Position numbers and translations under genes: made by a program. The notes beneath the pieces are model-generated. The model saw only the letters and a program-made list of their open reading frames with translations, made no database searches and had not been told where the DNA came from. DNA of 64,000 bases from Ruminococcus sp. GTDB taxonomy: Bacteria; Bacillota; Clostridia; Oscillospirales; Ruminococcaceae. Below are positions 31,339-64,000 of the stretch, piece by piece. The stretch covers positions 37,219 through 101,218 of the forward strand of contig JAGAQC010000001.1 in NCBI GenBank assembly GCA_017622925.1, written 5' to 3'. The first letter of the stretch is position 1; the number at the start of each line of letters is the position of its first letter.

Positions 31339-31564
31339 CATTGTTTACAACTTTAGTGGGGGACTCTGTCCCCCACACCCCCTGCCAAAGGGGTGACCCC
31401 TTTGGAATCTCTGTTGTCGTAAATTTTCCTGCATAAAGCCTTCCATATAAATCCGAATCCATATTTTTATGGCTTTATGCAGGGAAATTTACGATATAGG
31501 GTTCAATAGATAACCTTTTGGCAAAAGATATGAGAAACAATATCCAACTAAGTTGCAGACAATA
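31339..31564 (+). repeat. Repeat family B, copy 1
   Basis: About 226 bp with ends CATTGTTTACAACTTTAG and CTAAGTTGCAGACAAT. Inside are GGGGGACTCTGTCCCCC, CCAAAGGGGTGACCCCTTTGG and a long hairpin with arms CCTGCATAAAGCC / GGCTTTATGCAGG. No target duplication is visible here. It fills the gap between xylB and the M23 gene. Confidence 0.88.
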
Positions 31565-33590: not shown

Positions 33591-33782
33591 TCAATCTAAT
33601 AAACCATATTCTTTATACAGTGAAATCACACGGTTGTAAAATAAGCGGTTTCCCATATACTGCCGATATGTTGCAGATTTTTCTTTACCATGCAATTTAA
33701 GTTCGTCCATTGTGAGCTTTTCTGATTCGGCTTGTTCAAGTACCATTTTCATCATAGCTTCAAATGCTTCTAATCGTTCCAT
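33591..33782 (-). CDS. Small hypothetical protein (63 residues)
   Basis: A short gene with a clear GGAGGCG ribosome site and a consensus promoter (33841-33869). The peptide is helical and charged (MERLEAFEAMMKMVLEQAESEKL..., ending VISLYKEYGLLD). The family is not recognised. It is more AT-rich than neighbours and lies in an otherwise unoccupied gap next to repeat C. Confidence 0.6.
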   Translation of the reverse strand: MERLEAFEAMMKMVLEQAESEKLTMDELKLHGKEKSATYRQYMGNRLFYNRVISLYKEYGLLD

Positions 33783-33840
33783 ATTTCGCCTCCGTTAATA
33801 CCGACATTCTGTTTGTTTAATTCCGATTTATTTTACTATA

Positions 33841-33869
33841 ATTATACACCAAGAGGAGTTATATGTCAA
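33841..33869 (-). promoter_or_regulatory. Consensus sigma-A promoter of the 63-residue gene
   Basis: On the minus strand TTGACA (33869-33864), 17 bases, TATAAT (33846-33841). The same arrangement and much of the same sequence recur at 58542-58570. Confidence 0.85.
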
Positions 33870-33936
33870 TAGAAACGCCATAGTATTTTGGACTTATAAT
33901 CAAAAATACTATGGCTAAAAATTTCTATATGAGTAT
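33861..33936. repeat. Repeat family C, copy 1
   Basis: A ~76-bp unit starting ATATGTCAATAGAAA, with arms GCCATAGTATTTT (33877-33889) and AAAATACTATGGC (33903-33915), ending TTTCTATATGAGTAT. It is almost identical to 58800-58875. It lies 15 bases beyond the PBP2 stop and its edge contains the -35 box of the 63-residue gene. Confidence 0.85.
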
Positions 33937-47280: not shown

Positions 47281-47508
47281 TACTATCCATAACTTTAATG
47301 GGGGACTCTGTCCCCCATACCCCCTGCCAAAGGGGTGACCCCTTTGGAATCTCAGTTGTCGTAAATTTACCTGTATAAAGCCTTCTTATTTACTTGTAAT
47401 TTAAGTTCACATGGCTTTATACAGGTAAATTTACGATATTGGGTTCTAAGAGTTACCTATTTAGCAGAAAGTAAAGGGCAGCAAAATCCTATTAAGTTGT
47501 AGACAATG
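47281..47508 (+). repeat. Repeat family B, copy 2 (in the yfhO leader)
   Basis: 228 bp with ends TACTATCCATAACTTTAAT and ATTAAGTTGTAGACAATG, the GGGGGACTCTGTCCCCC and CCAAAGGGGTGACCCC hairpins and a hairpin with arms CCTGTATAAAGCC / GGCTTTATACAGG. It lies exactly between the promoter at 47514-47542 and the yfhO-like start. Flanks ATGTTATTAT / AATATATTAT agree at 7 of 10 positions, a possible decayed target duplication. Confidence 0.88.
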
Positions 47509-55890: not shown

Positions 55891-56119
55891 CCGTGTCTAC
55901 AACTTAATAGGATTTTGTTACCCTTTACTTTCTGTTAAAGAAGTAACTTGTGGTGTCCATTTTCGTGAATTGGACTGTGGAGGTCATGGAGAATAACAGC
56001 ATAGTGTTTATTTGGGGATTTCCACAGTCCAATTCACGACAACAGAGATTCCAAAGGGGTCACCCCTTTGGCAGGGGGTGCAGGGGGACAGAGTCCCCCT
56101 GATTAAGTTGTATATATTG
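55891..56119 (-). repeat. Repeat family B, copy 3 (inverted, with target duplication)
   Basis: 229 bp with ends CCGTGTCTACAACTTAAT and ATTAAGTTGTATATATTG. The central hairpin is the other subtype (arms GTGAATTGGACTGTGG / CCACAGTCCAATTCAC). The GC hairpins appear in reverse at the right. Flanking GAAATAAAAG (55881-55890) and GAAATACAAG (56120-56129) agree at 9 of 10 positions, a likely 10-bp target duplication. Confidence 0.9.
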
Positions 56120-57527: not shown

Positions 57528-57632
57528 TAAAAAAAATCTGTGTTATTATAATTATGATACATCTCTTGTTTTAAATAATTACACCTATAAAATAGATATG
57601 TTACTATATTTAGCAAATGCAATTAAGCATAT

Positions 57633-57890
57633 TCAAAGTAAAACTAATATGCCATTAATTTTTAGTTCAAGCTTAAATGTTTTGTTATAATCACTCGAAA
57701 GAATAGAAGTACATAATGGTATAATTGCTCCTAAACATATTGATGCAAAAAAAGCATATAGCTGTAGCTCACCATCCATACTTTTAAAAAAGCGATATTC
57801 TATTATAGCAGCAAGTGGGATCGAAAACAAATTAAGACTTATCAGCCATGCAAAAAGCATAAAATAGCTTTTTCCGTTATTATAATTCAT
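57633..57890 (-). CDS. Small hypothetical membrane protein (85 residues)
   Basis: From ATG 57890 with GAGGT upstream. Two hydrophobic segments (~10-30 and ~40-65) and a Lys-rich end. AT-rich codons unlike the surrounding genes. Not recognised. It lies downstream of the 177-residue gene and is probably co-transcribed with it. Confidence 0.55.
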   Translation of the reverse strand: MNYNNGKSYFMLFAWLISLNLFSIPLAAIIEYRFFKSMDGELQLYAFFASICLGAIIPLCTSILSSDYNKTFKLELKINGILVLL

Positions 57891-57963
57891 TTTTACCTCA
57901 ATATATATTTCTGCCGTTTGTGGTTTCATCACCGTCAAGTTCAACTATACAATACATGGTCAA

Positions 57964-58497
57964 CTATGAATTTTCATACAGAAGTCTTCTTACCTGTTCG
58001 TTTTCGCCCTCAATAAATAACTGATAAATATCGGATTTCTCTATATAGCATTTTCCGAAATAATTGCCATATGGATCAATGCAATTTAGACATATACTCT
58101 CCTTATTCAATTCAGAGATAAATCCTGTAACATCACTTCTGTCATTTTCAATTTTAAAAATATTACAGAACAGGTTCTTTTCAAAGCAAATTTTTAATAT
58201 GGTTTCAAAAAGATTATCGTTTTCAGGAATTTCAAATCGCTCTGGTTTAATCTTTCTGATTTGAAATAGCTTTTCATGCCGTTTCGTATCAAGAGAATCA
58301 ATTTCAAAAGTAATTATATCCGTAAAAAATACAAAACCATTATTATATCCACCATAATTCAGCTTGCTTAACAACAGACCCGTATCATCAACAGCTTGAA
58401 TATATCCCGTATAATAAAAATCATTTTCATTGCTATTATATACTGCGACCATTTGATGTTGGTTCATTATTTTTGTCAATTCGTTAAGAAATTTCAT
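57964..58497 (-). CDS. Hypothetical protein with two similar beta modules (177 residues)
   Basis: An AT-rich gene with GAGGAG upstream and a consensus promoter (58542-58570). Two segments look alike: YYTGYIQAVDDTGLLLSKLN...DIITFEID (about 28-67) and VTGFISELNKESICLNCID...EKSDIYQLFI (about 122-161). The pattern (short strands, a Gly, and a final hydrophobic strand after Asp-Ile) recalls Sm-like or SH3-like barrels; this is inference from pattern only. Family not recognised. Confidence 0.65.
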   Translation of the reverse strand: MKFLNELTKIMNQHQMVAVYNSNENDFYYTGYIQAVDDTGLLLSKLNYGGYNNGFVFFTDIITFEIDSLDTKRHEKLFQIRKIKPERFEIPENDNLFETILKICFEKNLFCNIFKIENDRSDVTGFISELNKESICLNCIDPYGNYFGKCYIEKSDIYQLFIEGENEQVRRLLYENS

Positions 58498-58541
58498 AAT
58501 AATTTGTAACTCCTCTGATAAATTTTATTTATCTTACTAAA

Positions 58542-58570
58542 ATTATACATCTAAATTAGTTATATGTCAA
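58542..58570 (-). promoter_or_regulatory. Consensus promoter of the 177-residue gene
   Basis: On the minus strand TTGACA (58570-58565), 17 bases, TATAAT (58547-58542). It is homologous to 33841-33869. Its -35 lies in the 10-bp duplication made by repeat B copy 4. Confidence 0.88.
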
Positions 58571-58571
58571 T

Positions 58572-58799
58572 CACTGTCTACAATTTAAGTGGGGGACTCT
58601 GTCCCCCACACCCCCTGCCAAAGGGGTGACCCCTTTGGAATCTCTGTTGTCGTAAATTATCCTGCATAAAGCCTGCCACATAAATTATAATCCATATTTT
58701 TATGGCTTTATGCAGGAGAATTTACGATATAGGCTCCAAAAAATTACCTCTCAGGCAAGAAATGCGAAAAAACAATATCCGCTTAAATTGTGGATAGTG
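58572..58799 (+). repeat. Repeat family B, copy 4 (exact 10-bp target duplication)
   Basis: 228 bp. Terminal inverted repeats CACTGTCTACAATTTAAG (58572-58589) and CTTAAATTGTGGATAGTG (58782-58799) agree at 16 of 18. It is bounded by exact ATATGTCAAT at 58562-58571 and 58800-58809. Internal hairpins are as in copy 1. It sits inside a repeat C/promoter unit. Confidence 0.95.
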
Positions 58800-58875
58800 A
58801 TATGTCAATAGAAAAACCATAGTATTTTTGACTTACAATCAAAAATACTATGGCAAAAAATTTCTATATGAGTAT
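58800..58875. repeat. Repeat family C, copy 2 (interrupted by repeat B)
   Basis: ATATGTCAATAGAAA, arms CCATAGTATTTTT and AAAATACTATGG, then TTTCTATATGAGTAT; only about five differences from 33861-33936. The homologous promoter part lies on the far side of repeat B at 58530-58571. Confidence 0.88.
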
Positions 58876-58904
58876 CGCTCTTAATTTTAAGGACGATTAA
58901 ATTA

Positions 58905-63660: not shown

Positions 63661-63880
63661 TTTACAGTATACTTATACAGTAGATATTGTTTCGCTTTAC
63701 TTTCTGTCAAAGATGTAACTCTCGGCGTCCATTCTCGTGAATCGGACTGTGGAAATCATGTGACTAACAATATCGAATTAATTCGGGGATTTCCACAGCC
63801 CGATTCACGACAACAGAGATTCCAAAGGGGTCACCCCTTTGGCGGGGGGGTGCAGGGGGACAATGCCAACAACTTAAGGT
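63661..63880 (-). repeat. Repeat family B variant, copy 6 (inverted)
   Basis: Left end TTTACAGTATACTTATACAG matches copy 5; the right end resembles neither subtype clearly (ACAACTTAAGG). Central arms CGTGAATCGGACTGTGG / CCACAGCCCGATTCACG; CCAAAGGGGTCACCCCTTTGG is present. It lies upstream of the fused lipoprotein gene. The remaining 63881-64000 shows no gene that I can support; TTGACA at 63971 has no -10 within the window. Confidence 0.7.
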
Positions 63881-64000
63881 TTTTTAGCATTTACCCCGCA
63901 AATAACATCAATAAAAGCAACAAAGAAAATGATGCACAAAAACAAGTTGAAAGTTTGTGCAAAAAGCGAATTGACAAAACGAAAATGCCGACAAAATCGA

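What the first reader, a model, noticed from the sequence alone, without database searches (positions are those of the whole stretch)
58562..58809. A non-coding mobile element (family B) with exact 10-bp target duplication, nested in another repeat and duplicating a -35 box
Seen: 18-bp terminal inverted repeats (16/18 match) bounded by ATATGTCAAT on both sides. The duplicated bases include TTGACA (minus strand), the -35 of the gene at 57964-58497, so the promoter remains intact after insertion. The target itself is a repeat C/promoter unit whose uninterrupted copy is at 33841-33936. Inference: a MITE-like element moved by a transposase encoded elsewhere; 10-bp duplications are typical of IS4-like enzymes, but the parent is unknown.
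Basis: partly seen in the sequence, partly recalled or inferred. Interest (0 to 1): 0.72.

Follow-up and report, generated by a model that had tools for sequence, protein, structure and literature searches.

The report
IS4-type miniature transposon with hairpin core
A 228-base non-coding jumping element in a gut Ruminococcus genome; it belongs to a large family most likely moved by an IS4-type transposase, and its hairpin-rich middle is unusually well preserved.

Summary
Window 58572-58799 is a 228-bp non-coding element with 18-bp inverted ends (16/18) between exact copies of ATATGTCAAT, the only such case in the window. It belongs to a large family: 31+31 end hits in the same genome, control 0. 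Over 62 paired elements only a 10-bp duplication stands out: 14 exact, mean identity 0.72 against 0.41 shuffled.

The parent is known in kind: a 1413-bp insertion sequence with matching ends, an exact 10-bp duplication and a 445-aa IS4-type transposase in related Ruminococcus. Ends of a related copy (about 74% identity) lie at contig edges of this genome; no complete copy is assembled. So it is a MITE, most likely moved by that enzyme.

New: the parent shares only the ends. The interior is a row of hairpins with compensatory changes and a 34-bp core invariant in 29 of 29 aligned copies. Diverged, covarying relatives of two hairpins occur in other species without these ends and match no Rfam family at gathering score. 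Why the core is so uniform is unsolved.

The parts
58562..58571 (.). Left copy of the 10-bp target duplication ATATGTCAAT
58572..58799 (.). The 228-bp non-coding element
58572..58589 (+). Left terminal inverted repeat CACTGTCTACAATTTAAG
58589..58609 (+). Stem-loop 1; one outer pair is T-A in 17 and C-G in 10 of 29 copies
58611..58644 (+). 34-bp core, invariant in 29 of 29 aligned copies; 32 bp of it exact in 39 of the 40 copies
58618..58638 (+). Stem-loop 2 CCAAAGGGG-TGA-CCCCTTTGG (also listed as terminator-like, tail AATCTCTGTT)
58650..58666 (+). Left arm of stem 3, pairs with 58711-58727; sequence differs between copies, pairing mostly kept (95.9% of cells)
58711..58727 (+). Right arm of stem 3
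58782..58799 (-). Right terminal inverted repeat (CACTATCCACAATTTAAG on the minus strand)
58800..58809 (.). Right copy of the target duplication, with the displaced TTGACA
58565..58570 (-). TTGACA (-35-like) inside the left duplication copy
58542..58547 (-). TATAAT (-10-like), 17-bp spacer
58816..58854 (-). Terminator-like hairpin of the interrupted target repeat (unit C), downstream of the rplA-like ORF
33840..33936 (-). Uninterrupted paralogue of the target repeat (paralogous empty site)
31339..31564 (+). Older copy of the same family
47281..47508 (+). Older copy of the same family
55891..56119 (-). Older copy; flanks CTTGTATTTC/CTTTTATTTC, 9 of 10

Best explanation
A non-autonomous transposon (MITE) of a large family in this Ruminococcus genome. 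A transposase of the IS4 type, encoded by an insertion sequence with the same ends, binds the 18-bp inverted repeats, cuts the element out and inserts it at an AT-rich site with staggered cuts that leave a 10-bp duplication. Shown: matching ends, the 10-bp duplication, many copies, the kind of transposase in relatives, and both ends of a related insertion sequence in this genome. Inferred: the protein-DNA steps, that a complete working copy exists here, and that this very insertion was made by that enzyme. Here it entered the -35 region of a promoter-like sequence lying in another repeat; because TTGACA is inside the duplication, that sequence stayed whole next to the gene, while the terminator-like hairpin upstream was pushed 238 bp away. 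The interior is not a remnant of the insertion sequence: it is a row of hairpins whose pairing is kept while sequence drifts, around a core that hardly drifts in this genome and its sister species. I infer that the module is kept either because it has a role as folded DNA or RNA or because recombination among the many copies keeps it uniform.
For: 10-bp duplication: exact in 14 of 62 paired elements at length 10, in 1 at length 5, in 0 at the other lengths tested from 4 to 14; mean identity 0.719 vs 0.405 shuffled, maximum 0.453. Ends: 31+31 hits at up to 2 mismatches in the own genome, reversed control 0. Near-identical copies at different sites with different exact duplications (L001/L002, 99%). 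Parent: L074, 1413 bp, ends CACTATCCACAACTTAAC/CTTAAGTTGTGGATAGTG, GATGCTAAAC on both sides, 445-aa ORF; L114, also 1413 bp between ends, exact GTTTCGGTTG, open stretch of 454 codons; PF01609 1.1e-17, NF033592 139.2 bits over cut-off 115. Own genome: transposase residues 409-445 at 73% (1.6e-11) in one place and 1-25 at 68% (E 0.007) in two, next to the same ends at contig edges; four such stretches of 137-140 bp align over their whole length to L074 at 73.6-75.0%. Empty sites. Structure: z -9.7; 96.8% of cells paired, 80 cells with both sides changed vs 31.2 shuffled, 0 of 500 shuffles reach either.
Against: No complete parent insertion sequence was found in this assembly (87.8% complete, 76 contigs); only ends are seen. 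G080 has 108 end hits but no transposase match at 1e-10. In 100 genus genomes the ends are listed in 11, but 7 of these have a single hit, and the reversed control also gives single hits, in 10 genomes; only G000 (77), G080 (108), G043 (8) and G018 (3) stand clear of it. Transposase is in 6 of the same 100; overlap is 3 of the 11 (P 0.017) or 2 of the clear 4 (P 0.017): suggestive only. The D2-E spacing of the transposase is 85, below the published 100-150. In G080 the whole block 57531-58899 is absent, so it offers no empty site for this copy. On structure: the number of pairs with both sides changed (11 vs 8.8 shuffled, 20 of 500 reach it) and of pair types (21 vs 22.5, 472 of 500 reach it) is not remarkable, shuffles still pair 91.5% of cells, and the covariation term is -2.03 of -60.66 kcal/mol. 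Orientation towards genes within 200 bp is balanced (13 same, 20 opposite) and G-T vs A-C mismatches differ little (51 vs 34), so no transcribed strand is indicated.
Confidence: 0.92

Rival explanations
1. The hairpin interior is an undescribed structured module (RNA or DNA) with its own role, which IS4-type ends have captured and spread.
For: Relatives of the two-hairpin module occur in G017 and G001, which have no hit for these ends. By eye, the 13 G017 and 6 G001 copies read are followed by a short hairpin and a T-rich stretch; in the two loci scanned, L213 and L224, a terminator-like site lies just after the module. Over 20 module sequences from several species, 9 of 18 pairs have changes on both sides (shuffled 4.7, 0 of 500 reach it) and 97.0% of cells pair, 39-67% when slid. 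Within the MITEs. 34 bp invariant in 29 of 29. No Rfam family at gathering score.
Against: No clear strand bias in mismatches or insertion orientation. Further pair types are not above shuffles. Pairing may be kept by copying between arms. No expression data.
Confidence: 0.35
2. The core is uniform only because recombination (gene conversion) among the many copies homogenises it; no function beyond parasitism.
For: 129 core copies in G000 and 60 in G080, none in the other 123 genus genomes, all at up to 3 mismatches: alike within two sister species (rplA 97%), different in others, as concerted evolution predicts.
Against: Conversion would be expected to spread into the flanking stem 3 and tail, which differ strongly between copies that share the exact core.
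Confidence: 0.45
3. The element is moved by a different transposase (for example of another insertion sequence with similar ends) and the likeness to the IS4-type ends is secondary.
For: What looks like the end of a second insertion sequence with partly similar ends (CAATGCCAACAACTTAAGG; no transposase seen) lies at the window's right edge and in L033; some module copies have other or decayed ends.
Against: The 18-bp ends of this family agree with the insertion-sequence ends found in the own genome, and both the insertion sequences and the MITEs make 10-bp duplications.
Confidence: 0.06
4. Chance or assembly artefact.
For: None found.
Against: Single hit of its kind in the window, dozens of copies in two species with control 0, fold z-score -9.7.
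Confidence: 0.01

Closest known systems
MITEs of prokaryotes (review PMC10969869, passages seen)
   Same: Short, non-coding, TIRs, target duplications, stem-loop-forming, IS-derived ends
   Different: Interior not derived from the parent; its hairpin module has relatives in genomes that lack these ends; 34-bp core more uniform than the ends
IS4 family insertion sequences (PMC2266710, passages including Table 1 seen)
   Same: Single-ORF DDE transposase with YREK, about 10-bp duplications, 5'-CA ends, about 1.4 kb
   Different: D2-E spacing 85 instead of 100-150; by eye the ends fit none of the listed subgroup consensuses fully; AT-rich target with T at positions 2-3 and A at 8-9
BOX and RUP repeats of Streptococcus pneumoniae (PMC3049150, abstract and section 5 read)
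   Same: Over 100 copies each, MITE-like, modular (BOX), predicted secondary structure, dense in closely related species only, read by the authors as parasitic
   Different: Other sequences and ends; here a candidate parent with the same duplication length is identified
MIC231 / IS231 mobile insertion cassettes (recalled; only a search listing seen)
   Same: Non-autonomous elements moved by IS4-family transposases
   Different: No passenger gene here; different ends

Membership tests
MITE | Short and without a transposase gene | tested here: met
   228 bp, no ORF of 60 aa or more
MITE | Terminal inverted repeats | tested here: met
   16/18
MITE | Target duplication of fixed length over many copies | tested here: met
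   10 bp, 14 of 62 exact; at no other length from 4 to 14 does mean identity exceed the largest shuffle
MITE | Many copies at different sites, with empty sites | tested here: met
   a paralogous empty site and one for another copy; none for this copy
MITE | Ends shared with an autonomous element in the same genome | tested here: inconclusive
   Ends plus terminal transposase codons at contig edges; complete copies only in relatives
MITE | Mobilised in trans by that transposase | not testable with these tools
   needs an assay
IS4 family (the 1413-bp parent L074) | Y-(2)-R-(3)-E-(6)-K signature | tested here: met
   YFKRWPVEVKFDIVK in the 445-aa ORF, read by eye
IS4 family (the 1413-bp parent L074) | Single transposase ORF without frameshift | tested here: met
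IS4 family (the 1413-bp parent L074) | Target duplication of about one helix turn | tested here: met
   exact 10 bp in L074 and L114
IS4 family (the 1413-bp parent L074) | NCBIfam IS4 model above curated cut-off | tested here: met
   NF033592 139.2 vs 115 bits
IS4 family (the 1413-bp parent L074) | D(60-110)D(100-150)E spacing as given in PMC2266710 | tested here: not met
   D77D85E: first spacer fits, second is short. I therefore call it IS4-like and assign no subgroup
Rfam RNA families | Match at gathering score | tested here: not met
   0 in the window, 0 in 18 module loci of G017 and G001

The most novel reading that the evidence does not exclude
The tandem-hairpin module is an undescribed structured element of the genus Ruminococcus, functional as folded RNA or DNA, that exists in several carriers: repeats ending in a terminator-like hairpin in some species, and in this genome and its sister an IS4-type MITE that has spread it to well over a hundred sites with its core hardly changed. 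The MITE would then be a vehicle that disperses a working structured element.
Probability: 0.3. Interest if true: 0.68.

Novelty: new variant of a known kind. Interest (0 to 1): 0.47.

Why it matters
It ties a high-copy MITE family of a common gut genus to a transposase with predictable ends and a 10-bp footprint, so mobility can be tested directly. The contrast between a nearly invariant 34-bp hairpin core and freely changing neighbours within the same element, and the presence of relatives of that hairpin module outside the MITE, pose a testable question about what keeps non-coding mobile DNA conserved: function, recombination, or a requirement of transposition. It also shows a concrete way in which a target duplication spares a promoter-like sequence.

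Tried and rejected
Searched and empty: phage records, plasmid records and viral contigs for the exact core gave no match; the tool notes that records very near the window's genome may be left out. Rfam at gathering score gave nothing for the window or for 18 of the 19 G017 and G001 module loci; sub-threshold hits (lowest E 0.0014) are far below the family cut-offs and were disregarded. A pattern scan for a second type of ends, seen by eye in copies at 61.4 and 63.8 kb and in L023, L036, L158, L171, L176, L179 (its hit in L157 looks spurious), gave 0 hits at up to 3 mismatches in G000 and G080: those ends are too diverged or my consensus was poor, so a second end type rests alone, and no clean duplication could be read for it.

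Orthologous empty site for the window copy: not obtained. The neighbouring 177-aa gene has matches in only 2 of 124 other genus genomes, partial and with stops inside, and G080 lacks the whole block. For the folD copy (L003), G080 carries a different insertion near the same place, not a clean empty site; G043 shows a single ATTGAATAAA; G091 and G059 show no element but a changed target; 2 of the 6 loci printed (L206, L207) gave no readable site.

Strand test for RNA: G-T 51 vs A-C 34 mismatches, too weak. Insertion context: 29 of the 62 pairs passed the script's filters; 8 were spanned by an ORF in a rough ORF call, 12 tandem, 6 convergent, 1 divergent, 2 without a neighbour on one side; no conclusion drawn. 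The 62 pairs were not pruned; they include doubtful pairings (for example 124, 1013 and 1048 bp). A1 holds 29 of the 40 elements (which were picked for GGGG near an end): I left out the near-duplicate L002, nine copies of 278-287 bp with an extra hairpin insert, and L146. The core figure (offsets 1-33 nearly all 81 of 81) is biased, since the copies were found by that core; the 29 of 29 came from copies found by ends or whole-element similarity, and 39 of 40 hold the exact 32-bp core. In one search, ends were accepted at up to 6 mismatches. One search scored 40 of 177 first-look candidates. An identity count was off by one base and was redone.

Literature: MITE plus Ruminococcus (0 papers), MITE/BOX (15 of 25 listed), IS231/MITE (7 of 7 listed), Ruminococcus repeats (1 listed, PMC10589994, not opened), Ruminococcus noncoding RNA motifs (10 of 49 listed) and MITE plus IS4 (8 of 35 listed). 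None of the listed titles or abstract starts describes this family; apart from PMC2266710, PMC3049150 and PMC10969869 no paper was opened.

Full report
What is there. The element at 58572-58799 is 228 bp long, has 18-bp terminal inverted repeats with 16 matches, and lies between two exact copies of ATATGTCAAT. In the window it is the only place where an exact 10-bp direct repeat, 100-400 bp apart, encloses ends of at least 14/18. No listed ORF of 60 aa or more overlaps it. As single-stranded DNA it folds far better than its shuffles (-52.3 kcal/mol, z -9.7, 0 of 200 shuffles).

The insertion site. The duplicated bases contain TTGACA on the minus strand, followed after 17 bp by TATAAT, 12 of 12 consensus positions, in front of the gene at 57964-58497, which has no Pfam or NCBIfam match at E 0.01. 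The scan found 2 promoter-like sites where shuffles give 1.9, so only the perfect match is notable. The copy next to the gene keeps this sequence; the far copy is not listed as promoter-like. The rejoined target resembles window 33840-33936 at 87 of 97 positions, where ATATGTCAAT occurs once, and a third copy in C33.

Family and duplication length. The element has many relatives in its own genome: of 177 first-look candidates 40 were scored, and the ends occur 31+31 times with up to 2 mismatches, reversed control 0. In 100 genus genomes a degenerate end pattern with 1 mismatch is listed in 11; G000 (77), G080 (108), G043 (8) and G018 (3) stand clear of the reversed control, while the other 7 have one hit each, as 10 genomes have for the control. 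I paired ends in all loci read by then: over 62 pairs, flanks agree at length 10 (14 exact, mean identity 0.719; shuffled mean 0.405, maximum 0.453) and not above shuffles at the other lengths from 4 to 14, apart from one exact case at 5. The target is AT-rich with mostly T at positions 2-3 and A at 8-9. Size classes of about 180-190, 224-231, 253-254, 278-287 and 1413 bp share the ends. Near-identical copies at different sites with different exact duplications indicate recent movement.

Parent. L074, in G018, is 1413 bp with ends CACTATCCACAACTTAAC and CTTAAGTTGTGGATAGTG, GATGCTAAAC on both sides and a 445-aa ORF. The protein matches Pfam DDE_Tnp_1 (1.1e-17) and NCBIfam transpos_IS4_1 at 139.2 bits, cut-off 115, and shows YREK (by eye). 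Named copies: Ruminococcus sp. RGIG9104 from water deer rectum (L113, 100% identical, perhaps the same genome as G018) and an uncultured Ruminococcus (L114, 90%); L114 is also 1413 bp with exact GTTTCGGTTG and a 454-codon open stretch. In the window's genome only ends of such an element were found. Transposase residues 409-445 match in one place (1.6e-11) and 1-25 in two (E 0.007 each) beside the same terminal repeats. Four stretches (L034, L048, L049, L053) run 137-140 bp to a contig edge and align to L074 over their whole length at 73.6-75.0%. This is what a multi-copy insertion sequence looks like when an assembly collapses it (inference). The published IS4 description gives about 10-bp duplications, YREK and D(60-110)D(100-150)E (PMC2266710, passages); the protein here is D77D85E, so I call it IS4-like and name no subgroup. 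Against a tight link: G080 has many ends but no transposase match. Transposase is in 6 of 100 genomes; it overlaps the 11 end-bearing genomes in 3 (P 0.017) and the 4 clear ones in 2 (P 0.017).

Interior. The MITE shares only the terminal repeats with the insertion sequence (by eye). Inside it has stem-loop 1, stem-loop 2, a long variable stem 3 and an AT-rich tail. In 29 aligned copies, 34 consecutive positions (window 58611-58644) are invariant while mean column identity is 82%; 39 of the 40 copies hold the exact 32-bp core. Of 43 predicted pairs 11 have changes on both sides; the covariation term is small, -2.03 of -60.66 kcal/mol. 96.8% of cells pair (shuffled 91.5%, slid 37-48%), and 80 cells carry both-side changes against 31.2 in shuffles, 0 of 500 reaching either; but 20 of 500 shuffles reach 11 such pairs and 472 of 500 reach the 21 further pair types. 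These counts reflect few subfamily-level events and could in part come from copying between palindrome arms. The core occurs 64+65 times in G000 and 34+26 times in G080 with up to 3 mismatches, and in none of the other 123 genus genomes. Diverged relatives of the module occur in other species: G017 and G001 have no hit for the ends, yet carry many module copies, by eye after another hairpin and before a short hairpin with a T-rich stretch; a terminator-like site just after the module was listed in both loci scanned. Over 20 module sequences 9 of 18 pairs have both sides changed (4.7 shuffled, 0 of 500), 97.0% of cells pair (slid 39-67%), though further pair types are not above shuffles (491 of 500). 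Rfam has no match at gathering score. Of 81 module copies read in G000 and G080, 61 have the ends of this family on both sides at up to 6 mismatches and 20 have one or none, including a possible second end type that a pattern scan did not confirm.

Empty sites. For the window copy only the paralogous empty site is available, because G080, the nearest relative found (rplA 97%), lacks the whole block 57531-58899. For the copy after folD (L003, ATTGAATAAA on both sides), relative G043 has GGTATTGAATAAAC with no element, while G080 has a different insertion there.

How it works. Most likely cut-and-paste by the IS4-like transposase acting in trans on the ends (the family mechanism is from PMC2266710; its action here is inferred). 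The uniformity of the core is the open point. Recombination among copies explains it within two sister species but not why adjacent stems escape it; a role in transposition or as folded RNA or DNA explains conservation but finds no support in orientation or mismatch bias.

Verdict. As a MITE with an IS4-type parent it is a known kind; the captured, covarying and partly invariant hairpin module makes it a variant worth a test.

Noticed in passing
window 33840-33936, 58541-58571 plus 58810-58875; G000:C33:55608-55701: Unit C: a repeat of about 97-120 bp made of a long terminator-like hairpin and a consensus promoter-like sequence; in the window it lies in front of a 63-aa ORF (33591-33782) and of the 177-aa ORF; the gene at the C33 copy was not checked. 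Two more distant hairpin relatives in C44. Nature unknown.
   Followed up: partly
window 57531-58899: Block with two small ORFs, unit C and the MITE is absent between rplA and the lipoprotein-like gene in sister genome G080.
   Followed up: partly
window about 63860-64000 (right edge = contig end); L033: What looks like the end of a second insertion sequence (CAATGCCAACAACTTAAGG...; no transposase seen) set into stem-loop 1 of a MITE copy; the contig stops inside it.
   Followed up: partly
L152 (G080), L051 (G000), L142 (G080): Tiny remnants of 30-53 bp made of the two end repeats nearly fused, with flanks matching at 8-10 of 10 (GTTTTCGAGG exact in L152): probably internal deletions of the hairpin interior (by eye).
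   Followed up: no
L211-L223 (G017), L224-L229 (G001): Multi-copy repeats with the same two hairpins, an extra upstream hairpin and a terminator-like end; no Rfam match at gathering score in 18 of these 19 loci tested.
   Followed up: partly
L065 (G008) 1344-1546: Tandem array of the same hairpin module, about three units.
   Followed up: no
L009, L020, L052 and others; L036, L046, L058, L122, L133: The 278-287-bp class has a hairpin insert of about 55 bp in the loop of stem-loop 1; the five 253-254-bp elements carry a different but similarly built hairpin module between the same ends.
   Followed up: partly
L203, L152 (G080): Another small repeat with AGACCTCCTCG...CGAGGAGGTCT ends at or near sites of this family in G080.
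   Followed up: no
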